Virus record (IMG/VR): IMGVR_UViG_3300024974_000009
Location: 1-38,775 of that record
Strand: one strand, 5' to 3'
Source: a virus
DNA length: 38,775 nt
Below, piece after piece: positions 1 to 38,775 of this stretch. Each line of letters starts with the position of its first letter. The stretch's first letter is position 1. Position numbers and translations under genes: made by a program. The notes beneath the pieces are model-generated. The model saw only the letters and a list, made by a program, of their open reading frames with translations. It made no database searches and was not told the origin of the DNA.

Positions 1-127
1 AAGGCGACAAAGAGATTAAGCCTAAGAATTACAGATCTGATAATGATTATCCAATGTGGATTGGTCCAGATAGATTCTTTGAATTGAAACGTCTTGGTGA
101 TAAAGCTTTTGAGAGTGCAAATGGAAA
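1..127. repeat. Terminal direct repeat (circular overlap), left copy
   Basis: Bases 1-127 are identical to 38649-38775. The open reading frame that enters the right copy continues across position 127 into unique sequence with no break, so the repeat marks a circular or terminally redundant genome. The exact 127-bp length equals a common assembler k-mer, so an assembly overlap is more likely than a biological end. Confidence 0.95.
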
Positions 128-24555: not shown

Positions 24556-24620
24556 TTTACACTTAGTGTAAACATTCAATTTTAAACAGCTTGCATTTTG
24601 AGTATGAGGGGGCATACACT
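24556..24620 (+). promoter_or_regulatory. Integrase promoter region with inverted repeats (attP candidate)
   Basis: A perfect 8-bp inverted repeat TTTACACT-T-AGTGTAAA lies at 24556-24572. A promoter-like pair follows: TTGCAT (24591-24596), 18-bp spacer, TACACT (24615-24620), with a second inverted repeat GTATG/CATAC (24602-24606 and 24613-24617). attP of serine integrases often lies next to the gene, so this is one of two candidate places; the other is at 26099-26148. Confidence 0.4.
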
Positions 24621-24647
24621 CTCGCTATCCTACGCTCAAAGGTGAAT

Positions 24648-26183: not shown

Positions 26184-26303
26184 GGTAGGGGCTTGCTCTG
26201 CAAGGCGTTTCTGCTCAAGCATTTCATAAAGCATAGGACCAAGTATTTTGGCTGCTTTTTTGGCGTCTGGCTTATTTGCAGTGATAAATTCTATTTCAAG
26301 CAT
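26127..26303 (-). CDS. Small protein downstream of the DGR reverse transcriptase
   Basis: 58 residues: starts MLEIEFITANKPDAKKAAKI, ends KQPSQLDSGDSVA. The ATG at 26303 overlaps the reverse-transcriptase stop by 8 bases, suggesting translational coupling. The first 40 residues should be helical and charged; the C-terminal tail is encoded by the inverted repeat, so both it and the integrase on the opposite strand read SGDSVA. It is unlike any family I know. Overlap with the integrase end (57 bases, opposite strand) lowers the confidence that the whole frame is used. Confidence 0.45.
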   Translation of the reverse strand: MLEIEFITANKPDAKKAAKILGPMLYEMLEQKRLAEQAPTSRRKLKQPSQLDSGDSVA

Positions 26304-27714
26304 TTTTATGTACCTTTGCTCGATAGGTCTTAGTTATGGCCATGTTTATGCAATGGCCTTTATCTCTAAGTGCATTAGCTATTTTAGTGCGGTCACGATG
26401 GCTTTTTGATGCCTGTCTCAACAATCCAAAATAGCTATTAGCCATTTCGAATGTTTCATCTGCGGGTGACTTTTTAATCTGATTAATAGCTTCATTGACA
26501 GTGCGTTTACGCGTATATCTATACCAAGGCTTAATCACTTGACCAACAAAATCAACTCCACGATCAACCGGCTGCAGAATGGTTTTAGTAGGGTTTAGAT
26601 TGGCATTTAGCTTAGTAGGTAAGAACTCATTAATACGTGCTAAAGCACTGTTTAACCACTGTGGTGACTCATGCAATAGAACAAAGTCATCAACGTAGCG
26701 GATATAGTGCTTAGCTCCTATTTGATGCTTAATGAATTGGTCTAGTGCATTTAGATAGATATTGGCAAAGAACTGAGAGCTTAGATTGCCAATGGGTAAG
26801 CCCAAGTGACTTGGTTGATTAGTTAAGCGTTTGTGTGGTGGTACTAGATCTATTTTTTCAGGATAGCCACGCAATTCAAAGTTAGTACGTGGATCATGAA
26901 ATAGAATGACGTCTGATAACCATAACCACCATGACTCAGTCACTTTAGTAGCGACTTGTTTGCGCAATACATTTTTATCGATAGCAACAAAGAAGTTAGC
27001 TAAATCACACTTTAAGTAAAAACAAGGCTTACTCCAGTTCTCAGTAGCGCTGCGAATCTTTGACTCTAGGCGTTTAGCTGCATAAAGAGTGCCGCGCCCT
27101 GGTATGCATGCGCAACTATCATGAATGAATGATGCATAAAAGCGTGGTGAAATTCGATTGTAAAATAAGTGGTGCACAATGCGATCACGAAAGTCAGCAG
27201 CCCATACTTCACGGGGTTTTGGTCTAGTGATGACAAAGCAAATAGATTTACCTGGTGCATAAGTATTTGCTTTTAATTCATCATAAAGCTTAATTAAGTT
27301 GTGCTCTAGGTTTAATTCAAACGCTAAAGCGCTCGATGTATTACGTTTATTCTTACGGCAATCTAAATAGGCTTGTACCAACTCTTCAAAAGCAAAATCA
27401 GCAACTAGGCGTTCGGTATGATCTGCGGACAGCGCGGGCGCGCAACTCGTTATTCTTGTTGTTGTTGTTCTGGTTGCCGTTGTTGAAATTCTGATACCAG
27501 GCATAACTTGAATTAGAGGCGTGCTGCGTTGTATCTTACTATCTACGTCGCTCTGCCGAAGGACTGATTTAATGTCAGCGCCGATCAGTGGAGTAACTGC
27601 GCTAGACCTATCCTGAAAGCTATCAGTGGTATCTATACTGCGCATAGCGGTAGCCTTTTGAGCTAGCGGTAAAACCAGATTATTTAATCGTACGGTCATA
27701 TTAGCCTTAACCAT
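26296..27714 (-). CDS. DGR reverse transcriptase (template repeat inside its frame)
   Basis: 472 residues if started at ATG 27714, which overlaps the Avd stop as TAATG. RT motifs: CDLANFFVAID (motif A, Asp237), HLGLPIGNLSSQFFANIYLN (303-322, the retron/DGR/group II-type motif), YIRYVDDFVLLH (Asp342, Asp343), then KLNANLNPTKT and FVGQVIKPW. The RT domain begins near FAFEELVQAYLDCRKNKRN (108-126), where most DGR RTs begin; residues 63-98 are the translated template repeat. No ATG occurs between codon 71 and the late C-terminus, so translation must start at or before the repeat. The enzyme copies TR RNA with errors at adenines and transfers the cDNA to VR. With Avd it forms the active complex. 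Confidence 0.95.
   Translation of the reverse strand: MVKANMTVRLNNLVLPLAQKATAMRSIDTTDSFQDRSSAVTPLIGADIKSVLRQSDVDSKIQRSTPLIQVMPGIRISTTATRTTTTRITSCAPALSADHTERLVADFAFEELVQAYLDCRKNKRNTSSALAFELNLEHNLIKLYDELKANTYAPGKSICFVITRPKPREVWAADFRDRIVHHLFYNRISPRFYASFIHDSCACIPGRGTLYAAKRLESKIRSATENWSKPCFYLKCDLANFFVAIDKNVLRKQVATKVTESWWLWLSDVILFHDPRTNFELRGYPEKIDLVPPHKRLTNQPSHLGLPIGNLSSQFFANIYLNALDQFIKHQIGAKHYIRYVDDFVLLHESPQWLNSALARINEFLPTKLNANLNPTKTILQPVDRGVDFVGQVIKPWYRYTRKRTVNEAINQIKKSPADETFEMANSYFGLLRQASKSHRDRTKIANALRDKGHCINMAITKTYRAKVHKNA
27421..27527 (-). repeat. DGR template repeat (TR)
   Basis: 107 bp, aligned without gaps to VR1 (28101-28207) and VR2 (28583-28689). On the minus strand it is rich in AAC/AAT codons: in the target frame it reads NNGNQNNNNKNNE, the typical template with Asn codons at variable positions. 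Substitutions in VR1 (10) and VR2 (15) all lie at template A. Its final 29 bases (27421-27449 on +) are invariant and G/C-rich, as expected for the initiation-of-homing region. Confidence 0.96.
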
Positions 27715-28064
27715 TATGAAACAGACGATGCGGAACGACGCCAGCCATTGGCCTGTTTACCTATGCTGCTTGTGAGTTCAATGACCTTTGCATACTGGCC
27801 AGTTGAAATCAGGCGTTTATCACGTGATAGGCGAATGAGTAACTCTAAAACCTGTTGTTTTTCTACAAGCTTTAAAAGATGAGGCACTTTCTCACGTGAT
27901 ACATTGGCTCTAAATATAAGCGTGACAATATCAACGGATTCGTCACGAAGCTTACTGCCAATGCTCTGTTTGAAATCACGTGGCATGTTCTTAGCCAAAT
28001 CAGTGATCACGTCCAGAAGGTCGTAAGCAATCTTATAAATAGGTAGGTCTGTATGGTTTGCCAT
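27714..28064 (-). CDS. avd: DGR accessory variability determinant (Avd-like, four-helix bundle)
   Basis: 116 residues, all-helical. Pattern: LPIYKIAYDLLDVITDLAKN, MPRDFKQSIGSKLRDESVDI, VTLIFRANVSREKVPHLLKL, VLELLIRLSRDKRLIS, and IGKQANGWRR, matching Avd proteins of DGRs and the related four-helix bundle family. Avd forms a pentameric barrel that binds RT and the template RNA. It lies between the second target and the RT, the classical order target - avd - TR - RT. The ATG at 28064 has no clear ribosome site (T-rich upstream), and its TAA overlaps the RT start (TAATG). Confidence 0.93.
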   Translation of the reverse strand: MANHTDLPIYKIAYDLLDVITDLAKNMPRDFKQSIGSKLRDESVDIVTLIFRANVSREKVPHLLKLVEKQQVLELLIRLSRDKRLISTGQYAKVIELTSSIGKQANGWRRSASSVS

Positions 28065-28086
28065 GTTGAATAAAAAAATAATTAAA

Positions 28087-28536
28087 TTACTGAATAATTA
28101 ATCTGCGGACAGCGCGGGCGCGCAACTCGCCACCCTTGCTGGTGTTGATCTGGTTGCCGTTGTAGAAATTCTGATACCAGGCAGAACTTGAAATAGAGGC
28201 GTGCTGCTCATTTGTCCAATACCATGCCTCTTCAAACTCTTCTTTAAGGTTGGCATATAGCAATGCTTGCTCACGTCTATTTGGTAACTCACCACCTTGT
28301 TCTTTAGCCCATGTGAGTGCATCAGTCCAATTAATCTCTGATTGATGACCATCGAGTAAAATCAAGTGATAGCTAGATTCACCATCTTTACCTAAGATTA
28401 GACCTGCATAACGCTCACCTGCTTTAAGTGATATTTCAGTATGTGGAAATACATACTCAGTAGTTTGTTTTTCAAAGCTTGAAATCAGGCTTAATATTTC
28501 ATCCTGCTTAGCTTTGATGGTTTGTAATGTGATCAT
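28087..28536 (-). CDS. DGR target protein 1 (C-type-lectin-like, carries VR1)
   Basis: 149 residues with an AGGAG ribosome site. An N-terminal helix (QTIKAKQDEILSLISSFEKQ) precedes the lectin-like domain: LKAGERYAGLILGKDGESSY, HLILLDGHQSEINWTDALTW, GGELPNRREQALLYANLKEE, AWYWTNEQHAS, ending GELRARAVRRLIIQ. Residues about 110-146 are encoded by VR1. Compared with the template, eight Asn or Tyr codons are changed, at surface-loop positions of the DGR lectin fold. No signal peptide or membrane segment, so it is cytoplasmic unless carried on the virion. Ligand unknown. Confidence 0.93.
   Translation of the reverse strand: MITLQTIKAKQDEILSLISSFEKQTTEYVFPHTEISLKAGERYAGLILGKDGESSYHLILLDGHQSEINWTDALTWAKEQGGELPNRREQALLYANLKEEFEEAWYWTNEQHASISSSAWYQNFYNGNQINTSKGGELRARAVRRLIIQ
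28101..28207 (-). repeat. DGR variable repeat 1 (VR1)
   Basis: 107 bp, 10 mismatches to TR, all at template A: five to G, two to C and three to T on the minus strand. It encodes the C-terminal end of target 1; the invariant 29-bp end is at 28101-28129. Confidence 0.96.
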
Positions 28537-28571
28537 TGATAGCTCCTAAATTAAAAAAAATAATTAAATGA

Positions 28572-28931
28572 CTAAATAGCTAATCTGCGGACAGCGCGGG
28601 CGCGCAACTCGTTACCCTTGTAGTGGCTGTCCTGGCCGCCGTTGTCGAAACCCTGACACCAGGCACAACTGGAATCAGAGGCGTGCTGCTCATTTGTCCA
28701 ATACCATTCAGGGTTGAATTGGTCTTTTGATTGGTTGAATAGTAGGGCGCTTTCTGCACGGTTAGGTAGGTCGCCACCAAGTGATTTAGCCCACTCCATA
28801 GCATTATCCCAATTGCCATCATCTTTATCGCCTGTAAGTAGAATGATGTGGCTGCCAGTGCCATCTGGGTTGATGATTGCCCCTGCGTAGATTTCGCCAA
28901 TATTTAATTCTGGTTTAGTGATTTGGTTCAT
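28572..28931 (-). CDS. DGR target protein 2 (C-type-lectin-like, carries VR2)
   Basis: 119 residues, AAAGG ribosome site. Same lectin-like core as target 1 without the N-terminal helix: NIGEIYAGAIINPDGTGSHI, ILLTGDKDDGNWDNAMEWAK, GGDLPNRAESALLFNQSKDQ, EWYWTNEQHAS, ending NELRARAVRRLAI. Residues about 81-116 are encoded by VR2. VR2 differs from TR more than VR1 does, and two Tyr codons of the template have become Cys (SSCAWCQ), which could form a disulfide or bind metal. The two targets are clearly paralogues by duplication including their 3' flank. Ligand unknown. Confidence 0.93.
   Translation of the reverse strand: MNQITKPELNIGEIYAGAIINPDGTGSHIILLTGDKDDGNWDNAMEWAKSLGGDLPNRAESALLFNQSKDQFNPEWYWTNEQHASDSSCAWCQGFDNGGQDSHYKGNELRARAVRRLAI
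28583..28689 (-). repeat. DGR variable repeat 2 (VR2)
   Basis: 107 bp, 15 mismatches to TR, all at template A. It shares the invariant 29-bp end (28583-28611) with VR1 and TR. The A/T-rich flank just beyond (28561-28582) resembles that of VR1 (28076-28100) and not that of TR. Confidence 0.96.
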
Positions 28932-28964
28932 TTTGTAGCCTTTCGTTGGTTGTGGTTGGTAAAA

Positions 28965-29981
28965 TTAAGCGGTTAGTTCTAAGTAAATTTGTAATGTATG
29001 CATGGCTTTTTCAATATCCATACGGCCACCTTTATCTCGTTCACGCGCAAGGTATGAGAACACTTCTTTTTTCATAGCACCTTTAAGTTCTTCGGGTGTC
29101 ATCCAGCGTTTAAAAACTTCCCATGGCTGATAAATGCCTAGTTTTGTATAGTGATCACCACCAATTTGAGAGGTCAGAGCTGAGAGTCCAGCAACGCAAT
29201 TAATATCTTCAAGCTCGGCTGTAAATGACAGTGCTGTTAATTCATCTGCAGGAGAAAATGGCATTGTTTTAACTGGCGCAATAGTTGGCTTTTCTTCAGC
29301 TGCAGCATTAAATTGAGCGACTTCATCAGCTAAAGTATTTGGCTTTTTAACCTTAGCGACTTTGGCTTTACTCATTTGCACTACATCATCGGTATGATTG
29401 ACCAGGCTATTTTTAAAATAGCGGATAGTATGAATGACACCTTTTTCATTTGATTTCAAAGCACGTTTTGTATAGCCGCCTGCTTTAATTGTGTAGGTGA
29501 TCATGTCGCCTGCTTTGCGGATTAAATCATCAGTAGATGTTTCACCCACAAGCTTAAACAATAGTTCGTTATGGGATATACCTTCCTTATCAGTTGCATC
29601 CAATATTTCACGTATTTGCGCGGCTTTAAATGGTTTTTCTTGCATGTCGATTCCTTCACTGTTGTTTGATTTAGATTGCTTGAGTGCTGCCCAGCTGGCA
29701 GGTTCTAGCGGCTTTACTTTTGGCTCTTTACCGAACGTAGGTATTGGGTCTTTAGTCATTGCAGGACCTTTGAAACCTGTTGGCCAATACTGCAGATAGG
29801 TCAATGTGCCTTTGGTGATCTGACAGCGATTCACAAAGCCTTTTTCAAATAGGTAATCCAGTGCCGGCTGAATTAAGATGCTTTTAACGCCGCAACCGGT
29901 ATAAATCTCAGGTGCGGTTTTAGCCTGGGCAGGCGTCGCACCTTTTAAGAAGTCGAGTATTGTTTGCTGCGCGGGTGTCAT
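28965..29981 (-). CDS. DUF3310 protein with winged-helix-like N-terminal regions
   Basis: 338 residues. Two helix-turn-helix-like regions (residues about 5-60: QTILDFLKGATPAQAKTAPE, ALDYLFEKGFVNRCQ; and 120-190: REILDATDKEGISHNELLFK) are joined by linkers. The C-terminal ~70 residues are DUF3310: LTSQIGGDHYTKLGIYQPWE, FKRWMTPEELKGAMKKEVFS YLARERDKGGRMDIEKA. DUF3310 occurs in phage nucleotide-kinase-like proteins such as T7 gp1.7. The fusion suggests a DNA-related early function. It overlaps the ParB-like gene by 4 bases (ATGA). Confidence 0.75.
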   Translation of the reverse strand: MTPAQQTILDFLKGATPAQAKTAPEIYTGCGVKSILIQPALDYLFEKGFVNRCQITKGTLTYLQYWPTGFKGPAMTKDPIPTFGKEPKVKPLEPASWAALKQSKSNNSEGIDMQEKPFKAAQIREILDATDKEGISHNELLFKLVGETSTDDLIRKAGDMITYTIKAGGYTKRALKSNEKGVIHTIRYFKNSLVNHTDDVVQMSKAKVAKVKKPNTLADEVAQFNAAAEEKPTIAPVKTMPFSPADELTALSFTAELEDINCVAGLSALTSQIGGDHYTKLGIYQPWEVFKRWMTPEELKGAMKKEVFSYLARERDKGGRMDIEKAMHTLQIYLELTA

Positions 29982-31789
29982 GCCTCAACCTCTACGGTAT
30001 CGCTCGCACCACTGGTTTGCGCTGACTCAGTCAGCGCCTTAGTATTTAGATCTGCGTTAGCAGATTCCTTTTGTTCTTGCTTCTGGGCTTTTTTAGCGCG
30101 TTTGGCCAATTCTTTGTCTTTGATTTCCTGCAATTTAGGCGACAGTTGGGTTTCATTATTCGCAGGCGCAGCCAAGTCGGCGTTTGATTCAACCGCCTGC
30201 GCAGCCAAAGGTGGGGTAAGGGGCAGTTCGGCGGTTAAAAATTGCGATAAATCGAGGCCAATATTGCCAATAAATGAGAGTAGGGCTTGGTAATCTGTGT
30301 CGTTTTCGTTATCTGCTTCAGTTTCCCAACCCCAATGAACCTCTAAACCTGGTGCGAGTAACAACATGGCGAGCATTTTCAGCAATTCCTTTTGACCTTG
30401 CTTACTTTGCTGAAAGTCTGTGAAAAACTCTTCTTCAGTGCCTTCAAATTGATATTGATCTAACACTGGTTGTAAATCAGTTGAAACATCTGTACTCAGC
30501 GTTGTAATGGCCATTCTAAGTAGGAGGTGAACAGTATCAACGTTAAAATAATCAATCTTAGGTATTAGGCGATTGAATATATGTATGCGTCTTTCATCCT
30601 CAACGGACTGTCTAGCTTCTTTGGCTTCCTGTTCAATTTTCCAAGCTGGCTTTTCTTCAGGCTCTTTAGGATTAACTACTAACTCACCTGAAGCTAGTTT
30701 TTCTTTAATTTTTTCTTTTAATAATGATTGCACCTCACTAGTTTTATAAATGACGACAACATTATTTTTATCATCAACAATGGTATGGCTTGGTGGGTTA
30801 ACTTCAGCAATTAATTCATCGGTGATTTGAACGCCATCTAAAGAATAAACACATGCTTTAGCTTCTTTTTCATAGCCTCTTAAATATCCACCAACTAATC
30901 CATACGGTGCAATTTCTTTAGCAGCTTCACCATGAATGACGTTGGGCTGAGTTTTAATCACATCATGCGCATAAGCTATTTTTTTCGCCGCAAAGCATGC
31001 GGTATCTGTACAGACGTCTGTACTATCAATGTCTTGAAATAACTCTGGATAATTGCCGGTGCGTTTAGGGCAACTAAAGCAGCTGCCAGCCATCGGATAT
31101 AACGTGGTGCTGATTTTATCCCATGGCGCTTTACTTAAATCTAGGGTGAAATTCTGGCGAATATAGTCTTTACTACGACGAAAACTAAGCTCATTACTCA
31201 CAATGTCTTTAGCGGCTTGCTCCTGAAGTTTCGCGCCTGGTATGCGTGCAATGAGTAATGCAATTTCACGGCCAAACTTACCTTCAAAGAACAAGTCTTG
31301 CGCATAAGTACATAGTTCATTTAGTTTGAGTGAGCCATATATATAGCTGCGTGATTTGCCTATTTTGACGGCTAGTTCGTCTGCATCCCAGCTTTTAGCG
31401 TCTTTGTTATCGAGTAGGGCTTTAAAGCCTTGCGCTTCTTCAAGTGGGTGAAGGTCTGAGCGTTGCAGGTTTTCTATGATCTGCAGCTGCAGTGTTTCTA
31501 AATCGTCCAGCTCGCGGATGATGGCGGGGATGGTGTCTTGTTGCGCTAGCTTACTCGCACGCCAGCGGCGCTCACCTGAAACAAGTTCATAAAGCGTGTG
31601 GCCTGTTGGATCCATCGACACAGCAGCGTCATTGGTTGGGCGTACTAAAATTGGCTGCATGACGCCATGCTGCTTAATACTATTGGCTAAATCTTGCAGA
31701 TCAGCTGAGTCAAACCGCTTGCGTGGATTAGTAAGTGAGGCACGAATATCGCTGATGTTAATATGCTGGCCAAGGGTTTGCGTTTGCAT
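29978..31789 (-). CDS. ParB-like DNA-binding protein with a Cys cluster
   Basis: 603 residues. The N-terminal ParB/Srx domain has DIRASLTNPRKRFDSADLQD, YELVSGERRWRASKLA (residues 68-82) and ENLQRSDLHPLEEAQGFKAL (106-125); the helix-turn-helix DADELAVKIGKSRSYIYGSL follows. A cysteine cluster (CFSCPKRT ... VCTDTACFAAKK, near 237-270) may bind zinc. The rest is helical and charged and the end is low complexity. ParB-like proteins centre on DNA and may stabilise or regulate the phage chromosome. No ParA gene is present, so a full partition system is not shown. Confidence 0.88.
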   Translation of the reverse strand: MQTQTLGQHINISDIRASLTNPRKRFDSADLQDLANSIKQHGVMQPILVRPTNDAAVSMDPTGHTLYELVSGERRWRASKLAQQDTIPAIIRELDDLETLQLQIIENLQRSDLHPLEEAQGFKALLDNKDAKSWDADELAVKIGKSRSYIYGSLKLNELCTYAQDLFFEGKFGREIALLIARIPGAKLQEQAAKDIVSNELSFRRSKDYIRQNFTLDLSKAPWDKISTTLYPMAGSCFSCPKRTGNYPELFQDIDSTDVCTDTACFAAKKIAYAHDVIKTQPNVIHGEAAKEIAPYGLVGGYLRGYEKEAKACVYSLDGVQITDELIAEVNPPSHTIVDDKNNVVVIYKTSEVQSLLKEKIKEKLASGELVVNPKEPEEKPAWKIEQEAKEARQSVEDERRIHIFNRLIPKIDYFNVDTVHLLLRMAITTLSTDVSTDLQPVLDQYQFEGTEEEFFTDFQQSKQGQKELLKMLAMLLLAPGLEVHWGWETEADNENDTDYQALLSFIGNIGLDLSQFLTAELPLTPPLAAQAVESNADLAAPANNETQLSPKLQEIKDKELAKRAKKAQKQEQKESANADLNTKALTESAQTSGASDTVEVEA

Positions 31790-31801
31790 GATGGTTCCTG
31801 A

Positions 31802-32284
31802 CTAATTGATAGTGGGGTTAAGTAGAATTTGAAGCTGGGCGTTTTTAGCAATGCGGACGATTTCTCTGCGATCGGCCTCACGAAATGCAATGCGGAAAAT
31901 ATCGAGTGCGATATCTGCAACGCCGATTATTTCAGCTTGAATTAATATGCCTTTTTCTAAGCGCTCTGATATGGCATAAAAGCTTTTTAATGGCAGTGAT
32001 AAATGAAGTTCATCGCTTATTTTTTGCCATGTAAAAATCCATCCATTGAGAGCGGGTAAAACTTCTATCCACTGGCCGCTGTTATCTCTAAACACTGGTA
32101 CATCATTAGCGCAATCAATCGAGCCATTTTTCAGCTGGTCGATGATGCTTTGTGGCATATCAAATACGGTGAACTCATCTAGTAGGGCAGGTAATGGCAC
32201 TACACGCTCGGCATGGGTAATGCCTCTACGGGTGTTCTTTTCAGCTTGGCGGCGTTGGGCGCGGTTTAAATTAGTAGGGGTCAT
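31802..32284 (-). CDS. Hypothetical early protein
   Basis: 160 residues from ATG 32284. The start MTPTNLNRAQRRQAEKNTRRG is basic; the middle (about 30-80: PLPALLDEFTVFDMPQSIID, GSIDCANDVPVFRDNSGQWI) is mixed, and the C-terminal half is a long helical region (HLSLPLKSFYAISERLEKGI, DIALDIFRIAFREADRREIV). It overlaps the upstream small membrane protein by 14 bases; the ParB-like gene starts 12 bases after it. A longer in-frame start (32365) lies inside the upstream gene and is less likely. No family recognised. Confidence 0.65.
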   Translation of the reverse strand: MTPTNLNRAQRRQAEKNTRRGITHAERVVPLPALLDEFTVFDMPQSIIDQLKNGSIDCANDVPVFRDNSGQWIEVLPALNGWIFTWQKISDELHLSLPLKSFYAISERLEKGILIQAEIIGVADIALDIFRIAFREADRREIVRIAKNAQLQILLNPTIN

Positions 32285-32393
32285 GTGCGTCTTTCTCATT
32301 GGTATCATCTGGCTTATTAATGCCCAATAGAGCCCAAACAATGATGAGTACAACCGCAATGGCAATGACGCCGAATATTTTTATTAAGGTCAT
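32271..32393 (-). CDS. Tiny single-pass membrane protein
   Basis: 40 residues, starting MTLIKIFGVIAIAVVLIIVW and continuing as ALLGINKPDDTNEKDAHDPY: one membrane helix and a short acidic tail. The ATG overlaps the preceding gene's stop by 4 bases (ATGA) and its end overlaps the next ATG, so it is translationally embedded in the leftward operon. Function unknown. Confidence 0.6.
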   Translation of the reverse strand: MTLIKIFGVIAIAVVLIIVWALLGINKPDDTNEKDAHDPY

Positions 32394-32620
32394 TTGAAGC
32401 TCACAATCGTGCCGCAAACTTGTTTCTGTTCATTTTGTTCATGTGCATGTGGGTTGATAACACATGCTTCTTTAGCATCTGATACGAATGTCATATTCAC
32501 GTATGGCTCTGCATCATTAAATAAAAAAGCACCTGATAGCGAAGCGGCAACAATGAACAGCAAAGGTAGATAGGATGTTTTTGGCTTTGGGGTAAAACTG
32601 CACTTAGTAGATGGGCGCAT
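32390..32620 (-). CDS. Small membrane or exported protein
   Basis: 76 residues with a good ribosome site (AAGGAA). A basic N-terminus (MRPSTKCSFTPKPKTS) precedes one hydrophobic segment (YLPLLFIVAASLSGAFLF, about 17-34), then a soluble tail with two Cys (EACVINPHAHE, QVCGTIVSFK) which could form a disulfide in the periplasm. Topology suggests a single-pass anchor with outside tail. No family recognised. Confidence 0.6.
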   Translation of the reverse strand: MRPSTKCSFTPKPKTSYLPLLFIVAASLSGAFLFNDAEPYVNMTFVSDAKEACVINPHAHEQNEQKQVCGTIVSFK

Positions 32621-32629
32621 GATATTTCC

Positions 32630-32752
32630 TTAAAACGCTTGTAAAAGTGATTGAATGAATAGAGCGCTGAGTGCCAATGCAATAGAAAACATGATGCTTT
32701 TATCAGCGATGTCAGCACGTTTATAGGCTTTACGAGTCATGTTTTTGGTCAT
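32630..32752 (-). CDS. Tiny membrane protein
   Basis: 40 residues, MTKNMTRKAYKRADIADKSI followed by MFSIALALSALFIQSLLQAF: a basic N-terminus and one C-terminal membrane helix. AAGGA precedes ATG 32752 at a good distance, which is why I prefer it to the longer open frame (to 32911), which overlaps another gene. Function unknown. Confidence 0.6.
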   Translation of the reverse strand: MTKNMTRKAYKRADIADKSIMFSIALALSALFIQSLLQAF

Positions 32753-32762
32753 GATGTTGTCC

Positions 32763-32987
32763 TTAAAATGCATCTTGCCAATGTGGTATTGGTTGACGTG
32801 TTGTTTTTGGTTGTGGTGGTAATTGTTTGAGTAAGTCGGCTTGAATATCAGCGCGTATTTCTTTGGGTATAAATGGATATGAGCGCGAGGATAAAGATGG
32901 GTGACGGCCATGTTGATGTAGTAGCGTTTGGCGCGCTTTAACTGAGAGTGAATCCCAGACTGTTTTGGCTAAAAGATAATTTTTCAT
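32763..32987 (-). CDS. Small hypothetical protein, first gene of the leftward operon
   Basis: 74 residues with a GAGGT ribosome site, 55 bases downstream of the PL -10 box. Sequence starts MKNYLLAKTVWDSLSVKARQ TLLHQHGRH and continues RSYPFIPKEIRADIQADLLK QLPPQPK; soluble, basic, mostly helical. First in an operon under repressor control, so expressed early after infection or induction. No family recognised. Confidence 0.65.
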   Translation of the reverse strand: MKNYLLAKTVWDSLSVKARQTLLHQHGRHPSLSSRSYPFIPKEIRADIQADLLKQLPPQPKTTRQPIPHWQDAF

Positions 32988-33041
32988 GATTTACCTCGCT
33001 TCATTTTTCAAAAATTACTCAGGTTTGAGTGATGTTTTGAA

Positions 33042-33086
33042 ATAATATACAAGCATACTTGTAACTATGTCAACAAGAATAATTGT
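33042..33086 (-). promoter_or_regulatory. PL promoter with two repressor operators
   Basis: On the minus strand: operator ACAATTATTCTTGT (33073-33086), -35 TTGACA (33068-33073), operator ACAAGTATGCTTGT (33049-33062, between -35 and -10), -10 TATATT (33044-33049), spacer 18. It matches the PR module at 34500-34544 in 42 of 45 bases. It drives the leftward operon. Confidence 0.85.
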
Positions 33087-33148
33087 ATATTTTTAGAAAA
33101 GCGATTAATATTTAGGCAAGCAGAAATAATTCTGTGAAATTTAGACAA

Positions 33149-33172
33149 TAAAAAACCCGCATTAGGCGGGTT
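33149..33172 (-). terminator. Intrinsic terminator ahead of PL
   Basis: AACCCGC (33154-33160) pairs with GCGGGTT (33166-33172). On the minus strand a T run follows, so it stops transcription from the repressor side before the leftward promoter. Confidence 0.75.
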
Positions 33173-33228
33173 AAATAGGTGGGGTTATGTTAATTGAGGA
33201 TATTAAATTTAAACGTTCACGTTGCTGC

Positions 33229-33480
33229 TCAATGTGGATTACTGTTGAGAGTGGGTGTGAAACTGCCCCAAATAAGACTCAGGATGTAGTCCGCTTGCTC
33301 ACCAGGGATAGAAGCTGTGGCCCCCTGAAGCGACGCTTTTGCAGATTCAAAGACTTGCTGCATCGCTTCTTTATCAAGTACCCCTTTTTCAATCAATGCA
33401 GAAATAAGCTGCTTGGTGACAAAAAGATTGGCAAGCGCTAAGCCATCAATAGATAATTCTATTTGTTGTTTTTCAAGCAT
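33229..33480 (-). CDS. Small helical hypothetical protein
   Basis: 83 residues. Start MLEKQQIELSIDGLALANLF and VTKQLISALIEKGVLDKEAM QQVFES: mostly helical, acidic, soluble. It starts 2 bases after the exported protein gene stops, and is followed by a terminator, so the two form a short minus-strand unit probably expressed in the lysogen along with or separately from the repressor. No family recognised. Confidence 0.6.
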   Translation of the reverse strand: MLEKQQIELSIDGLALANLFVTKQLISALIEKGVLDKEAMQQVFESAKASLQGATASIPGEQADYILSLIWGSFTPTLNSNPH

Positions 33481-33482
33481 TA

Positions 33483-34049
33483 TTACTTAACCTTGGCTTT
33501 TTGATTCACTTTTGGCTCGTCCTTAGCCGGCATTCTAACTAAACAGTCTTTAAGCATTGGCCTACCAAGCATCATTCCGTTGCCAATACAATCTAGCACT
33601 ACAAGCTCACCCTTTTTTAAATTTGAGGCTAACGTTGTTGCAGTACAAATCGTTGCTGAAGATAAGGTTCCGCATATTTGAGTTGGATATAAGTTTGCAT
33701 TAATACCTTGATAACTATTTACTCCAGTATTATTAAATTCAAGGTAAATATCATCTGTGAAGTTTTTTGATATTTTGCTTACTTTACCTGCAAGGACGAA
33801 TAATTTATCTTTATATTGCGTATCTGCTTTAACTTCATTGGCTGTATAGTCAATAAATAATTTCTTAGGGCTATATATATTAAGGATTTGATTTCTAGTT
33901 AGGTTAAATCGATGATTTAACGCCTGATTGTTTGTATCACCAGTGGTGGTGAAAGCTGGTAGCGTTTTTTGCAAAATTTCTTTTGCATCTACTTGAAATA
34001 CTACGGAAGTTAATGCAAATAATATTGTAATTTTTTTTATAAAATGCAT
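33483..34049 (-). CDS. Exported OB-fold (tRNA_anti-like) protein
   Basis: 188 residues. A signal peptide (MHFIKKITILFALTSVVFQV with cleavage near DA/KE) is followed by a linker, then the pattern YTANEVKADTQYKDKLFVLA GKVSKISKNFTDD, the OB-fold tRNA_anti-like module of exported proteins, and the segment ICGTLSSATICTATTLASNL KKGELVVLDC with Cys that may pair. It lies on the repressor strand and downstream of it, outside the early operons, the usual place for genes expressed in the lysogen. Its role (possibly changing the host envelope) is inferred. Confidence 0.7.
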   Translation of the reverse strand: MHFIKKITILFALTSVVFQVDAKEILQKTLPAFTTTGDTNNQALNHRFNLTRNQILNIYSPKKLFIDYTANEVKADTQYKDKLFVLAGKVSKISKNFTDDIYLEFNNTGVNSYQGINANLYPTQICGTLSSATICTATTLASNLKKGELVVLDCIGNGMMLGRPMLKDCLVRMPAKDEPKVNQKAKVK

Positions 34050-34121
34050 TTTATTTATTTTGTTTATTCAAAATTAAGTGGTAATTGTATTTGCAAATAG
34101 TGTACGTTGTTTTTGAATTGT

Positions 34122-34463
34122 TTACTTTGCCATCTTGCTGAGTTTCGATACCGAATCAAGGCCCTTAATTGCTTCATCCAGCGCGTAATCAGGAAGCTCC
34201 TGCATTAAGAGGACTGCTTTTTTAATTCTGATATCTTCAACATATAAGCCATCTGTCATTTCGCCATGTCCTACAGCAAGCCATTCTGCACGGACGCCAC
34301 ATACCATAGCAATTTGAACTAAATACTCAGTACCTTTTGTAATACCGCGCTCTAGTAATGAGATATTTTGTTGAGTCATTAAGCCATTGAGTTTCTCTGC
34401 TAATTCTCTTTGATTGAGTTGAGCATGTTCTCTCGCTGCTGCTATTCGTTCACCTAAATTCAT
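34122..34463 (-). CDS. Short cI-like repressor (XRE helix-turn-helix)
   Basis: 113 residues from ATG 34463. The helix-turn-helix is MNLGERIAAAREHAQLNQRE LAEKLNGLMTQQNISLLERG (recognition helix near QQNISLLE), then RAEWLAVGHGEMTD and a helical C-terminus. It lacks the LexA-like S24 peptidase domain, so RecA-dependent self-cleavage is not possible and induction must differ from lambda. It lies divergent to the cro-like gene with operators between. An alternative ATG at 34472 is in frame; a longer open frame further up crosses the cro gene and is not used. Confidence 0.85.
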   Translation of the reverse strand: MNLGERIAAAREHAQLNQRELAEKLNGLMTQQNISLLERGITKGTEYLVQIAMVCGVRAEWLAVGHGEMTDGLYVEDIRIKKAVLLMQELPDYALDEAIKGLDSVSKLSKMAK

Positions 34464-34472
34464 GCTCAACAT

Positions 34473-34499
34473 ATTGTAGTCATTAGGTTTTTTGGTCAA
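34473..34499 (-). promoter_or_regulatory. Repressor promoter (PRM-like)
   Basis: On the minus strand TTTGAC (34495-34500) and TACAAT (34473-34478) are 16 bp apart. Transcription would begin around 34466, 3 bases before ATG 34463, so the repressor message may be leaderless. Confidence 0.45.
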
Positions 34500-34544
34500 A
34501 CAATTATACTTGTTGACATTCTTACAAGTATGCTTGTATATTAT
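34500..34544 (+). promoter_or_regulatory. PR promoter with two repressor operators
   Basis: Operator ACAATTATACTTGT (34500-34513), -35 TTGACA (34513-34518), operator ACAAGTATGCTTGT (34524-34537) in the spacer, -10 TATATT (34537-34542). The spacing (18) and operator positions are the same as in PL. The start codon at 34549 lies only 7 bases after the -10 box. Confidence 0.85.
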
Positions 34545-34548
34545 CGTC

Positions 34549-34827
34549 ATGAGTAAATTATTCCTTGAAAAAATTATTGAGCTTCTAGGTGGTAAGCAGC
34601 AGCGTTTAGCTGAGGTACTGTCCACCGATGAAAAACCAATTAAACAAGCCCATGTATGGAATTGGCTAAATGTTACGGCTGATGGGATTCCAGAACGCCA
34701 TGTCATTAAAGCTTGTAAGGCTGTCAATTTTCAGGTGACGCCGCACGAGTTGCGTTCTGATATTTATCCTCATCCGCATGATGGTCTGCCAGAGTCCATG
34801 CGTAATACCAGCGAGGCGGCTGCGTGA
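34549..34827 (+). CDS. Cro/YdaS-like regulator
   Basis: 92 residues from ATG 34549. SKLFLEKIIELLGGKQQRLA and QAHVWNWLNVTADGIPERHV IKACKAVNFQVTPHELRSDI YPHP match the YdaS/Cro family of phage helix-turn-helix proteins. It is the first gene under PR and should antagonise the cI-like repressor in the lytic path. A transcript from the predicted -10 box would start at or near the A of the ATG, so it may be leaderless; the upstream ATG frame (34492) crosses the promoter. Confidence 0.88.
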   Translation: MSKLFLEKIIELLGGKQQRLAEVLSTDEKPIKQAHVWNWLNVTADGIPERHVIKACKAVNFQVTPHELRSDIYPHPHDGLPESMRNTSEAAA

Positions 34828-34829
34828 GT

Positions 34830-35033
34830 TCATTTCTTAAAGCTCGCATGCGCTGCATCAATTACATCCCAGTCAATTTCTTTGGGTGCGCCACAGCCTT
34901 TGCAGTTTGGCAAAAAGCTAAACGGATCTGGGTTTTTCTTAGGGTCGGCAGGCTCACTGCCACTTTTCATGCCGCAGTGTGGGCATTTGTAAATCAAGTA
35001 GGTGCCATCAAACATGGTGGTTGATTCTTTCAT
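34830..35033 (-). CDS. Zinc-ribbon protein, convergent with the cro-like gene
   Basis: 67 residues from ATG 35033, which has AAAGG upstream (35041-35045 on the + strand). Two Cys pairs, KCPHCGM and NCKGCGAPKE, at a spacing suited to a zinc ribbon, with a linker SEPADPKKNPDPFSFLP. It lies on the minus strand between the cro-like and CII-like genes, with its stop 2 bases after the cro stop, so the two converge. Unknown function. Confidence 0.6.
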   Translation of the reverse strand: MKESTTMFDGTYLIYKCPHCGMKSGSEPADPKKNPDPFSFLPNCKGCGAPKEIDWDVIDAAHASFKK

Positions 35034-35318: not shown

Positions 35319-35780
35319 TTGACTATCCTACATTTTATACATCGAGTGGCGCATGATTTTGACGGTGGTATCGAGGGTTTGGTAAGTTTTATGAACCTTG
35401 GCCGCGAATCAAAATTAAGCACTCAGATGCTTACCAATAAATTGAATTTCAATTCCAACTCGCATCATCTGTACATTGAAGAGGCTGAGCAAATACTGGA
35501 CCGCACGAATCGTAATTTAGATGCGGCTAGGTTTTATGCTGAGAAAGCCAACGCAGTGGTAATGGCGCTGCCTGTGATGCCTGATGATGGTGATATGGGC
35601 ATGCTCGATATCGTCATGAGCAGCATGAAAGAGCTAGGCGAAGTGTTTAGCGTGTTTCAGACTGCTTATGCGGACGGCAATATCACCCAGCGCGAGTTTA
35701 GTGAAATATCGAGCGAAATTGATGATGTGATTGTGCGCTTGCTTGAACTTAAAGCGGCTGTGAAGCGAGTGACTCGATAG
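35319..35780 (+). CDS. CII-like phage regulatory protein
   Basis: 153 residues from TTG 35319, chosen because GGGAG lies 8 bases upstream and the next ATG lies about 25 codons in. FIHRVAHDFDGGIEGLVSFM, STQMLTNKLNFNSNSHHLYI and EEAEQILDRTNRNLDAARFY AEKANA fit the P2/CII-type (CP76-like) regulatory family. It probably influences the lysis-lysogeny choice. It starts the replication unit and ends with TAGTG, overlapping the next start. Confidence 0.72.
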   Translation: MTILHFIHRVAHDFDGGIEGLVSFMNLGRESKLSTQMLTNKLNFNSNSHHLYIEEAEQILDRTNRNLDAARFYAEKANAVVMALPVMPDDGDMGMLDIVMSSMKELGEVFSVFQTAYADGNITQREFSEISSEIDDVIVRLLELKAAVKRVTR

Positions 35781-38209
35781 TGTCAAATAAGCTCACCCCA
35801 ATTCCATACATCGAGATTAGCAGGGCGGCACTCAGTAGTGCTGAAACGCTGCTTAATCGCTGGTTACCAAGTGGCAGGCGACAAGGCCATGAGTACAAAT
35901 CCACTAATCCATTAAGAGCCGACAATAAAGAGGGCTCTTTCTCAATCAATATTAATACTGGTGCTTGGGGCGACTTTGCCACCAATGATGCTGGTAATGA
36001 TTTAATTAGTCTGTATGCCTACCTTGAAGGCTTGGAGCAATGGGAGGCTGCTATTGATGTGGCGGATCAGATTGCATTCAGCTTACCTGATGGCTGCAGA
36101 CCTAAAACCAAAGAAGCTAAGCCGCGCCAAAAGGCTGTGGTTAACCCTGATGATGTGAAACAGGCTAAGCCTAAAGAAGAGTCGCCCTGGCATCCTGTGA
36201 TTCCAGTGCCGTTGAATGCTGAAGCGCCACCATTAGCACATCCAGTACGTGGTTTGCCTGCCATGAAGTGGGAATACAAAGATGCTGATGGCCAGCTGCT
36301 TGGCTATATTTTACGTTTCAATACCAGTGACGGTGGCAAAGAAATTACGCCGCTGACTTACTGCAAAAACTCAAAGACTAACAAACATGAATGGCGCTGG
36401 ATGCAATGGGCTGAGCCTAAGCGTCCTTTGTATGGTTTAGATCGCCTAGCTGCAAAGCCTGAAGCTTATGTTTTGTTGGTTGAGGGTGAAAAGAGTGCGG
36501 ATGCGCCTGCAGAGTTGTTTAAGGGTGTTTCATGTAGTTGGCCGGGTGGTAGCAAGGCCATTGAAAAGATTGATTGGGCACCTCTAGCAGGCAGAAGTAT
36601 TTACGCATGGGCTGATTGTGATGCACAGCGTGAAAAGCTGACTAAAGCCGAAAAAGATGCGGGCATTGATGCTGAATCTAAGCCTCTATTACCTGAGCAT
36701 GAACAACCAGGTATGAAGGCAATGTTGCGCATTCGTGAAATATTACTCGCGCTTGATGCCAATACAAAATTTGAAATTATCGACATACCAAAACCATTAG
36801 ATAAGCCTGCAGGATGGGACGTAGCAGACGCAATTGAAGAGGGCATAGATGCACTATCACTCAATGCGTTTATTACGAACGTGCGGCCACAAATCGATGC
36901 TGCTGAGCCTAAAAAAGAACAGTCAGAACCTAAAAATGGCGCGGATTCCGCTGCGGCGGATGAAGATGAAGATGGTCCAAAGTGGCGTAAATATCTGCTG
37001 AGAAAGCAGGAATCTATTGTGCCTTGCTTGGCCAATGTTTACGACATTTTAAAGAATGATGAGCGCTGGAAAGGCGTCTTTGGTTACGATGAATTAGCCC
37101 TTCAATCGGTAAAGCTGAAGGCTCCACCATACATTGATATTAAAGGCGAGGCCGGCGACTTTAGCGATACTGATGCTGCATTAATCTCGATGTGGATCAC
37201 ACGTCAATATCGGTTTAGCCCATCGCCCGAAATGTGTAATAAGGCAGTTGAAACACTCTCGCACAGCAATAAATTTCACCCTGTCGTTGAATATCTGAAA
37301 AGCCTTGAATGGGATGGCGTAAAGCGTGTTGATACGTGGCTGCTGGACTTCTTAGGCGTGCCTTTGACTGCATACTCTAAGCGTGTAGCGCGTTGGTATT
37401 TGATGGGCATGGTGAAGCGCGTGATGCAACCAGGCTGCAAGTTTGATTACTGCTTGGTGCTTGAAGGTGAACAAGGTCGGAAGAAGTCTAGCACTTTCAA
37501 AATTCTAGGCGGTGAATGGTTTGGTGATACCGATATCGACTTAAACCATAAAGACTCTATGTCGGCATTACGTGGCAAGTGGTTGTATGAGTTTAGCGAA
37601 CTTGGCTCACTCGCCCGCGCTGAGTCGACGAAGCAAAAATCATTTCTATCGCGGCAAGTTGATGAGTTTCGACCGGTATTTGGTACGCGTGAGATTAAGG
37701 CACCTCGACAATTAGTGTTTGGTGGATCTACCAATGAAACTGAGTGGAATAAAGATTCCACTGGTGGGCGGCGTTTTTGGCCTATTACGGTGAATGAAGA
37801 GGTTGATACCGAAGGTTTGGAAATGACGCGGGATCAGTTATTTGCTGAAGCTTTGGTGATGGTTAATGAAGGTTTAAAGAATTGGCCAACCGCTGAAGAG
37901 CAGAAAAAGATTTTCGATAAAGAGCAATTTAAGCGCGGTATCAGTGAGAGTTTTATTGAGGCGCTACACGAGCATGTGATGACCCACAACGGTGAATTTA
38001 GCCTGCATTACGCCGCTACTGACTGGCTTAAATTTCAAATGAAAGACCTTACGCCTGCCACTCAAACCAGAATTGGCTCAGCTTTAATGAAGTTGGGCTG
38101 CACAAAGATAGAAAAACGCACCAATGCAATCAGTCGGTTTTGGTATATGCCTCCTAAACATGATTCACATATTCAATCGAAAGTAGAGGATGACGATGTT
38201 AATTTCTAA
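35780..38209 (+). CDS. Primase-helicase (VapE-type)
   Basis: 809 residues from GTG 35780 (overlapping the CII-like stop). The N-terminal part (LNRWLPSGRRQGHEYKSTNP, WGDFATNDAGNDLISLYAYL) resembles the template-recognition part of phage primases. A TOPRIM-like segment has YVLLVEGEKSADAP (about 229-242) and YAWADCDA (about 275-282). The C-terminal VapE/SF3-like helicase has Walker A LEGEQGRKKSS (about 559-569), LYEFSELGSLARAE and QLVFGGSTNETEWNKDSTGG RRFWP. It should prime and unwind at the origin. The array of 9-bp repeats follows directly. Confidence 0.9.
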   Translation: MSNKLTPIPYIEISRAALSSAETLLNRWLPSGRRQGHEYKSTNPLRADNKEGSFSININTGAWGDFATNDAGNDLISLYAYLEGLEQWEAAIDVADQIAFSLPDGCRPKTKEAKPRQKAVVNPDDVKQAKPKEESPWHPVIPVPLNAEAPPLAHPVRGLPAMKWEYKDADGQLLGYILRFNTSDGGKEITPLTYCKNSKTNKHEWRWMQWAEPKRPLYGLDRLAAKPEAYVLLVEGEKSADAPAELFKGVSCSWPGGSKAIEKIDWAPLAGRSIYAWADCDAQREKLTKAEKDAGIDAESKPLLPEHEQPGMKAMLRIREILLALDANTKFEIIDIPKPLDKPAGWDVADAIEEGIDALSLNAFITNVRPQIDAAEPKKEQSEPKNGADSAAADEDEDGPKWRKYLLRKQESIVPCLANVYDILKNDERWKGVFGYDELALQSVKLKAPPYIDIKGEAGDFSDTDAALISMWITRQYRFSPSPEMCNKAVETLSHSNKFHPVVEYLKSLEWDGVKRVDTWLLDFLGVPLTAYSKRVARWYLMGMVKRVMQPGCKFDYCLVLEGEQGRKKSSTFKILGGEWFGDTDIDLNHKDSMSALRGKWLYEFSELGSLARAESTKQKSFLSRQVDEFRPVFGTREIKAPRQLVFGGSTNETEWNKDSTGGRRFWPITVNEEVDTEGLEMTRDQLFAEALVMVNEGLKNWPTAEEQKKIFDKEQFKRGISESFIEALHEHVMTHNGEFSLHYAATDWLKFQMKDLTPATQTRIGSALMKLGCTKIEKRTNAISRFWYMPPKHDSHIQSKVEDDDVNF

Positions 38210-38497
38210 ATTGCAGCCGTTTTCTATGCAAATGTTCCATACCTTCCACACCTTGGCTAAAAGGTATGGAAGGCTAGAATCAAGTGCTGGTGCGGCTCTT
38301 CCATACCTTCCATACGTTCCATACCATTTTCACATACACATACATGGGCGCGCACATGCACACGCGCGCACGCACACGCGCACATGTTTTAAATCATCAT
38401 TTCTAGTATGGAAGGTATGGAAGGTATGGAAGAACGTTGCAAGACAACGGCTTTCAGGTTCCATACCTCAACACTTAGGTATGGAAGGTATGGAACT
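38210..38497. repeat. Iteron-like array around an alternating purine-pyrimidine tract (candidate origin)
   Basis: Twelve copies (9 exact, 3 with one mismatch) of the 9-mer TTCCATACC or its complement GGTATGGAA. Starts: forward 38235, 38244, 38299, 38308, 38317, 38459; complement 38263, 38405, 38414, 38423, 38478, 38487. The two main clusters face each other across 38326-38404, in which 38348-38387 is a perfect 40-base alternating purine-pyrimidine run (Z-DNA-prone). It sits between the primase-helicase and the next gene. The 9-bp unit keeps a reading frame open, but I do not think that frame is a gene. Confidence 0.8.
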
Positions 38498-38775
38498 ATG
38501 CTAGTTCACACTGAGTTTGAAATGCCGGTGGTTAAGTCTAAAGAGCAACGTGCAGCTGAGGTTCGTGCGGCTATGCCTGAGTGTTCTGCGATGGTTGATG
38601 AAATGCGTGCTTTGTTTGGTGATGATGTGGTGGTGCTGGCAATGACTGAAGGCGACAAAGAGATTAAGCCTAAGAATTACAGATCTGATAATGATTATCC
38701 AATGTGGATTGGTCCAGATAGATTCTTTGAATTGAAACGTCTTGGTGATAAAGCTTTTGAGAGTGCAAATGGAAA
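38498..38775 (+). CDS. Hypothetical protein, 5' part (continues at 1-152)
   Basis: N-terminal part of a 100-residue protein: MLVHTEFEMPVVKSKEQRAA EVRAAMPECSAMVDEMRALF GDDVVVLAM. ATG 38498 follows a repeat whose GGAAGG may serve as ribosome site. It is soluble and charged; a helix-rich start. It crosses the circle junction with no break. No family recognised. Confidence 0.75.
   Translation, partial: MLVHTEFEMPVVKSKEQRAAEVRAAMPECSAMVDEMRALFGDDVVVLAMTEGDKEIKPKNYRSDNDYPMWIGPDRFFELKRLGDKAFESANG
38649..38775. repeat. Terminal direct repeat (circular overlap), right copy
   Basis: Identical to bases 1-127. The same coding frame runs through both copies. The genome is therefore 38,648 bp when closed. 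Confidence 0.95.

What the first reader, a model, noticed from the sequence alone, without database searches (positions are those of the whole stretch)
38210..38497. Inverted clusters of a 9-bp iteron flank a Z-DNA-prone tract
Twelve copies of TTCCATACC/GGTATGGAA lie in 270 bp, forward copies mainly left and complement copies mainly right of a 40-base perfect alternating purine-pyrimidine run (38348-38387). The layout directly follows the primase-helicase, so a replication origin bound by that protein or an initiator is likely. Partition by the ParB-like protein is an alternative. The structure (iterons facing across a Z-DNA-like centre) is uncommon.
Basis: partly seen in the sequence, partly recalled or inferred. 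Interest (0 to 1): 0.72.

Follow-up and report, generated by a model that had tools for sequence, protein, structure and literature searches.

The report
Phage replication origin with Z-DNA-prone centre
Beside the gene for a phage's DNA-opening enzyme lies a mirror-image set of short binding sites around a stretch able to flip into left-handed DNA, and the same layout recurs in dozens of distantly related phages, so it is probably the place where these phages start copying their genomes.

Summary
Nine exact and three one-mismatch copies of TTCCATACC lie at 38235-38495 (0.23 exact copies expected in the whole window), arranged F F R-[27 bp]-FFF-centre-RRR-[27 bp]-F R R around a 40-nt perfect purine-pyrimidine run (38348-38387). 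It is a recurrent element. Pattern scans found it in viral contigs and betaproteobacterial genomes, and 52 of 53 loci have a VapE primase-helicase gene ending beside it. An independent VapE survey found other 8-9-bp iterons in the same facing layout. Iteron sequence tracks VapE's C-terminal winged-helix domain. Between phages the centre keeps its alternation but not its bases. It is the easiest Z-forming site of the locus in 52 of 56 loci, and a short AT-rich strip flanks its VapE-distal edge. VapE's nearest solved structure is the staphylococcal PriRep1 initiator-helicase. The best reading is a replication origin bound by VapE itself, working like SaPI/PICI origins (two iteron sets flanking an AT-rich region, 3' of rep) but inside complete tailed phages and with a Z-prone tract filling most of the centre. 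ParB partition is less likely. Replication, binding and left-handed DNA formation were not tested. GC skew gives no support.

The parts
35780..38209 (+). VapE-type primase-helicase (809 aa), proposed initiator that binds the iterons
   Evidence: PF05272 E 1.7e-68; PHROG DNA primase/helicase; phmmer to 7PDS_A 'Similar to D. nodosus vapE' E 7e-51; model of C-terminal half matches PriRep1 7PDS, Z 28.4 over 384 residues
37889..38161 (+). C-terminal winged-helix domain of VapE (proposed iteron reader)
   Evidence: Predicted wHTH, mean pLDDT 85; PriRep1 C-terminal domain aligned Z 6.6, rmsd 2.2 A, 70 residues; domain distance correlates with iteron distance, partial r 0.51 given the helicase core
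38235..38271 (.). left outer iteron cluster: F 38235-38243, F' 38244-38252 (1 mismatch), R 38263-38271
38272..38298 (.). left 27-bp spacer; in relatives carries gCCtGAAAgCCgcg; length 27 in 33 of 36 dereplicated loci (26 in the rest)
38299..38325 (+). left inner array, three head-to-tail 9-bp iterons (middle copy 1 mismatch)
38326..38404 (.). centre between the two inner arrays (79 bp); length varies 62-101 bp among relatives without helical phasing
38348..38387 (.). 40-nt perfect alternating purine-pyrimidine run; holds the easiest predicted Z-forming segment of the window (38358-38381, sigma_c about -0.040)
38388..38404 (.). AT-rich strip next to the right inner array (14 of 17 A/T), candidate opening site; the same edge is AT-rich in 39 of 39 dereplicated TTCCATACC-type loci
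38405..38431 (-). right inner array, three head-to-tail iterons in opposite orientation (first copy 1 mismatch)
38432..38458 (.). right 27-bp spacer with cggctttcagg (reverse complement of the left-spacer motif of relatives)
38459..38495 (.). right outer iteron cluster: F 38459-38467, R 38478-38486, R 38487-38495
38498..38775 (+). next gene, small unknown protein (100 aa; continues across the artificial contig end to window 152)
   Evidence: no Pfam match

Best explanation
The element is the phage's replication origin. VapE, a primase fused to a self-loading hexameric helicase, binds the 9-bp iterons through its C-terminal winged helix and assembles one complex on each side of the centre, facing inward. 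Opening starts between them: negative supercoiling and protein binding are taken up by the alternating tract, which can flip to left-handed DNA, and the short AT-rich strip at its VapE-distal edge melts, so that the helicases load onto single strands and the primase domain starts synthesis. Shown here: the anatomy, its recurrence, its tie to VapE and to the C-terminal domain, and signs of selection for alternation rather than sequence. Inferred: binding, melting, Z-DNA formation and replication.
For: Element beside the 3' end of a VapE gene in 52/53 pattern-found loci, including 13/13 bacterial-genome loci; the exception L015 is a contig cut about 200 bp away. In VapE loci the downstream 750 bp holds facing 18-mers (15/18 or better) in 122/150, against 2/150 shuffles; 61/85 in the survey that did not select on iterons. 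Iteron distance correlates with VapE C-terminal-domain distance, r 0.74; partial r 0.51 given the helicase core, 0 of 2000 permutations. The domain is a winged helix like that of PriRep1. The protein's best structural match is PriRep1, Z 28.4. SaPI Rep reads a downstream iteron origin with its C-terminal domain (PMC7581432); cloned PICI pri-ori replicates and needs ori (PMC6092414). A 4.3-kb plasmid (pGO128) whose only replication-type annotated protein is VapE-family carries facing iterons downstream. Spacers are 27 bp on both sides. Centre bases are shared little more than purine-pyrimidine-preserving shuffles give (0.558 vs 0.538). In close pairs transitions exceed transversions relative to VapE fourfold sites (OR 2.3, p 1e-4), and indels of 2 bp or more are even in 48/56, against 62% in a neutral simulation. 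The centre is the best Z site of the locus in 52/56.
Against: No replication, binding or DNA-conformation data. GC skew shows no clear switch at the element (fourfold-site skew -0.08 on one side, +0.03 on the other), so there is no support for bidirectional replication from it. The Z reading rests on sequence energetics; alternation could instead serve flexibility or low twist stiffness. Some loci have weak alternation (L008, L013, L014, L077). Facing iterons beside VapE could also serve autoregulation.
Confidence: 0.84

Rival explanations
1. Partition (centromere) site read by the large ParB-like protein encoded at 29978-31789; replication starts elsewhere.
For: Window and several relatives (VarioGold, Aval, a circular Comamonas phage-like plasmid) encode ParB-family proteins; iteron clusters can act as centromeres (general knowledge).
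Against: ParB_N found in only 15 of 28 records carrying such elements, absent from several of 42-51 kb (records may be incomplete). The element abuts VapE, not parB, and iteron sequence tracks the VapE C-terminal domain. Iteron arrays differ from the short palindromes of classical parS (general knowledge).
Confidence: 0.05
2. Regulatory region: VapE or another early protein binds the iterons to control transcription of the downstream operon, or of its own gene; the tract absorbs transcription-driven supercoiling.
For: Lies between VapE and a small gene read in the same direction; downstream genes in a relative include an antiterminator Q; Z-prone tracts often lie near transcription units (general knowledge).
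Against: The mirror symmetry with inward-facing triple arrays and fixed 27-bp spacers is more elaborate than known phage operators (general knowledge). The layout matches SaPI/PICI origins 3' of their initiator genes (PMC6092414, PMC7581432). A dual role is possible.
Confidence: 0.07
3. Origin as proposed, but the alternating tract works as flexible, GC-rich B-DNA (pyrimidine-purine steps bend and untwist easily) and never turns left-handed; opening occurs in the AT-rich strip only. (A variant of the best explanation, so its confidence overlaps with it.)
For: The AT-rich strip is present at the same edge in 39/39 loci; alternation maximises flexible pyrimidine-purine steps (general knowledge); comparators outside this VapE branch mostly lack alternation and have AT-rich or mixed centres.
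Against: The centre is the easiest Z-forming site of the locus in 52/56 loci, with estimated sigma_c near -0.04, so the transition is energetically plausible in supercoiled DNA.
Confidence: 0.4
4. Packaging (cos/pac) or recombination site.
For: HNH and terminase genes follow a few kb downstream in the window and relatives.
Against: In VarioGold the annotated cohesive end lies about 1.6 kb or more beyond the intergenic gap after VapE. Facing iterons follow VapE also in a small plasmid without packaging genes.
Confidence: 0.02

Closest known systems
SaPI / PICI replication origin (rep or pri-rep followed by ori)
   Same: Ori immediately 3' of an initiator-helicase or primase-helicase gene; two sets of iterons flanking a central region; initiator C-terminal domain reads the iterons (PMC6092414, PMC7581432). 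Related initiator (PriRep1 7PDS).
   Different: Here in complete tailed phages with terminase, not satellites. The centre is mostly an alternating purine-pyrimidine tract of 62-101 bp, GC-rich on average; the AT-rich part is only a strip of about 16 bp at one edge. Outer clusters with 27-bp motif-bearing spacers were not found described. [quoted passage not shown]
SCCmec Cch2 / putative SCC origin
   Same: D5/SaPI5-type helicase whose isolated C-terminal domain binds repeats just downstream of its gene (PMC7581432).
   Different: Few short 5-nt direct repeats there; no two facing arrays and no alternating tract described in the passages read.
Iteron plasmid origins (RepA/RepE/TrfA type)
   Same: Tandem short repeats bound by a replication initiator, next to a melting region.
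   Different: Those are usually one head-to-tail array with an AT-rich opening element and DnaA boxes (general knowledge); here two inward-facing arrays and an initiator that is itself a helicase.
Satellite phage P4 alpha protein with ori and crr
   Same: Primase-helicase that reads iterons with a C-terminal winged helix (general knowledge).
   Different: P4 uses two distant sites (general knowledge); the iteron comparison could not be checked in the literature held.

Membership tests
SaPI/PICI-type initiator-origin module | Initiator is a VapE/PriRep or D5-type (primase-)helicase with a C-terminal DNA-binding domain | tested here: met
   PF05272; PriRep1 7PDS phmmer 7e-51 and Z 28.4 over 384 residues; wHTH model
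SaPI/PICI-type initiator-origin module | Origin region immediately 3' of the initiator gene | tested here: met
   Element 26 bp after the VapE stop in the window; beside the VapE 3' end in 52/53 pattern-found loci. The Pseudomonas-type group has one small gene in between
SaPI/PICI-type initiator-origin module | Two sets of iterons flanking a central region | tested here: met
SaPI/PICI-type initiator-origin module | Central region AT-rich (presumed melting site) | tested here: not met
   Mean centre GC 0.63 against locus 0.59 for the main type; only about 16 bp at one edge is AT-rich
SaPI/PICI-type initiator-origin module | Initiator binds iterons and drives autonomous replication | not testable with these tools
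   Only co-variation of iterons with the VapE C-terminal domain was measured
PICI (the mobile element itself) | Satellite island lacking a full structural gene set | tested here: not met
   Window encodes a large terminase and is a circular or circularly permuted 38.6-kb phage genome
Z-DNA-forming sequence | Long alternating purine-pyrimidine tract with B-Z transition at attainable supercoiling | tested here: met
   Estimated sigma_c -0.040 with the energies of PMC3024258; calibration gave -0.034 where experiment gave -0.031
Z-DNA-forming sequence | Left-handed DNA actually formed in the cell | not testable with these tools
   No structural probing data
ParB/parS partition system | ParB gene accompanies the site | tested here: inconclusive
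   15 of 28 records with the element have ParB_N; the others may be fragments
Coding sequence through the repeats | Open and conserved reading frame | tested here: not met
   No frame open in more than 31 of 56 dereplicated loci; no forward frame open in 9. 9-bp repeats keep frames open by themselves

The most novel reading that the evidence does not exclude
A widespread class of phage replication origins uses left-handed (Z) DNA as a working part: natural selection keeps a supercoil-driven Z-forming tract between two inward-facing initiator-helicase arrays, in place of most of the usual AT-rich unwinding element.
Probability: 0.4. Interest if true: 0.88.

Novelty: new variant of a known kind. 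Interest (0 to 1): 0.74.

Why it matters
Origins of VapE-carrying temperate phages appear not to have been described in the literature held here, although such phages are common. The element gives a sequence rule (facing 8-9-bp iterons 3' of VapE around an alternating tract) that locates candidate origins in many phages and links them to SaPI/PICI and SCC replicons. It is also a rare case where comparative data suggest that purine-pyrimidine alternation, rather than any sequence, is kept by selection, which makes an old question, whether Z-DNA does anything in bacteria, testable in a small cloned replicon with matched iteron-initiator pairs.

Tried and rejected
GC skew as an origin signal: window-wide and fourfold-site skew show no clear switch at the element; cumulative skew of the circular Comamonas phage-like plasmid does not turn there either. 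Blastn of the region against cultured phages: no match; the exact TTCCATACC element was not seen in the named relatives read. Burkholderia phage Mica: no facing iterons found next to its VapE. VarioGold and Aval: only weak, degenerate facing repeats; Comamonas partly. Helical phasing of the two inner arrays across the centre: none (Rayleigh p 0.4-0.7 for 9-11 bp), against a rigid bridge of fixed phase. P4 iteron sequence: a resemblance to the Comamonas repeats was recalled from memory but not confirmed in the papers held, so it is not used. Literature searches for a Z-prone phage origin of this kind found none; subscription papers are mostly not held. Zalpha-like domains did not appear among the rows listed for the C-terminal domain; this is not evidence of absence.

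Full report
WHAT IS THERE. Twelve copies of TTCCATACC/GGTATGGAA (nine exact, three with one mismatch) lie at 38235-38495; 0.23 exact copies are expected in the whole window. The order is F F R, 27-bp spacer, FFF, centre, RRR, 27-bp spacer, F R R: a mirror arrangement. The centre (38326-38404) holds a perfect alternating purine-pyrimidine run of 40 nt at 38348-38387. None of 300 mononucleotide shuffles of the centre reached it, and the longest run in other same-size stretches sampled across the window was 14. A 17-nt strip with 14 A/T (38388-38404) joins the run to the right array. The VapE primase-helicase gene ends at 38209 and a small unknown gene starts at 38498. The window carries an exact 127-bp terminal repeat, and a second contig (L019) spans the junction, so the genome is circular or circularly permuted (38,648 bp) and the element is not at a physical end.

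IT IS A RECURRENT ELEMENT. The exact 18-mer TTCCATACCTTCCATACC found 59 other viral stretches, many with a facing copy about 100 bp on, though a minority are chance matches inside protein-coding sequence. Gapped pattern scans found 38 viral stretches and 13 bacterial-genome loci; the named ones are betaproteobacterial (Nitrosomonas, Dechloromonas, Methylovorus, Rhodoferax and others). In 52 of 53 loci with a facing pair a VapE homologue ends beside the element; the exception, L015, is a contig cut about 200 bp away. Between outer clusters and inner arrays the spacer is 27 bp in 33 of 36 left and 28 of 35 right cases, with a shared motif gCCtGAAAgCCgcg in inverted orientation on the two sides.

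THE LAYOUT IS WIDER THAN THE MOTIF. A survey starting from VapE proteins, not from the repeats, shows other iterons in the same facing layout 3' of VapE: TTCCTAACC, TTCCCAACC, TGTTCTACC, TGTCCCAGT and an 8-bp-period CTGTCCTA/CTGTCCCA group. Facing 18-mers of 15/18 or better occur in 122 of 150 downstream regions against 2 of 150 dinucleotide-shuffled ones, and in 61 of 85 survey loci. Over 58 dereplicated loci, iteron distance correlates with the distance of the VapE C-terminal domain (r 0.74; partial r 0.51 given the helicase core, 0 of 2000 permutations; core given that domain 0.34). Caveat: many loci were found by the motif, and related sequences are not independent.

THE PROTEIN. The C-terminal half was predicted with an 11-sequence alignment (mean pLDDT 77.7). 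Its best solved match is staphylococcal PriRep1 with dsDNA (7PDS; Foldseek E 1e-25; Z 28.4, rmsd 4.0 A, 384 residues), well above the next (NrS-1, SaPI5, papillomavirus E1, AAV Rep, D5) at Z 8-11.5. By sequence the only solved relative is that same chain, named 'Similar to D. nodosus vapE'. The C-terminal domain alone (57 sequences, pLDDT 85) is a winged helix; the PriRep1 equivalent aligns at Z 6.6, rmsd 2.2 A, but winged helices are generic at this level. In SaPIs the Rep helicase recognises the origin directly downstream of its gene with its C-terminal domain (PMC7581432).

THE CENTRE. In 39 dereplicated loci with the TTCCATACC-type iteron the median longest alternating run is 26 nt against a background mean of 6.6; with other iterons (17 loci) it is 15. 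Base identity between centres (0.558) is close to that of shuffles that keep the purine-pyrimidine pattern (0.538), so the pattern is shared and the sequence hardly is. Lengths vary from 62 to 101 bp without helical phasing. The 16 bp next to the right array are AT-rich in 39 of 39 loci relative to the locus mean. In close pairs, substitutions in the centre are biased to transitions relative to VapE fourfold sites (68:30 against 911:942, p 1e-4, pairs at 85% identity or more), and indels of 2 bp or more are even in 48 of 56 against 62% in a neutral simulation with the same aligner. Composition differences, a few duplicate pairs and alignment ambiguity temper this. With published B-Z energies (PMC3024258) and a two-state estimate of my own (calibration -0.034 against a measured -0.031; the supercoiling stiffness constant is from general knowledge), the centre is the easiest Z-forming site of the locus in 37 of 39 and 15 of 17 loci; for the window sigma_c is about -0.040.

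READING. The simplest account is a replication origin. VapE binds the facing iterons, two helicase assemblies face the centre, and opening occurs in the centre, with the AT-rich edge as likely entry and the Z-prone tract as a twist sink or opening aid. SaPI/PICI origins share the layout (two iteron sets flanking an AT-rich region, 3' of rep) and were called unique to PICIs (PMC6092414). Here the layout appears in complete phages. VapE-carrying comparators outside this branch (Staphylococcus, Paenibacillus, Corynebacterium and Clostridioides phages, the 4.3-kb plasmid pGO128) show facing or clustered iterons downstream of VapE, mostly without alternation and often with AT-rich centres, so the alternating tract looks like a derived trait of the proteobacterial branch. 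Replication, binding and Z-DNA formation are inferred, not shown.

ALTERNATIVES AND LIMITS. ParB partition: ParB_N in 15 of 28 records with the element. Coding: no conserved frame. Packaging: the annotated VarioGold cohesive end lies elsewhere. GC skew gives no support for bidirectional replication from here. Literature searches found no description of this element, but most subscription papers are not held.

Noticed in passing
window 26296-28931: A diversity-generating retroelement: reverse transcriptase (PF00078), two Lcl_C-domain target genes (28087-28536, 28572-28931), template repeat 27392-27545 and variable repeats 28072-28225 and 28554-28707; mismatches fall mainly on template adenines (22 of 44 and 27 of 48).
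   Followed up: partly
window 1-127 and 38649-38775: Exact 127-bp direct terminal repeat although the record is classed as linear; contig L019 spans the junction, so the genome is circular or circularly permuted, 38,648 bp.
   Followed up: yes
window 29978-31789: Large ParB-like protein (603 aa, ParB_N plus HTH_ParB); related large ParB proteins occur in about half of the element-bearing phages and in a circular phage-like plasmid of Comamonas.
   Followed up: partly
window 26200-35000: The minus-strand gene block has strong fourfold-site GC skew (+0.39 on the + strand) unlike the rest of the genome (near 0), perhaps a different origin or mutational history.
   Followed up: no
window 33483-34049: Superinfection-exclusion (Sie)-like protein next to the repressor.
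   Followed up: no
window 24591-26183: Large serine recombinase as integrase in the phage.
   Followed up: no
L178 (plasmid pGO128, 4340 bp): Small Gluconobacter plasmid with a VapE-family protein as its only replication-type annotated gene and facing AGCACTA-type repeats downstream; a possible minimal VapE replicon for experiments.
   Followed up: partly
L015 and L026: Subgroup with only single facing pairs (no outer clusters) around a long alternating centre; in L026 VapE is similar only in its C-terminal half, yet the iterons are the same.
   Followed up: partly
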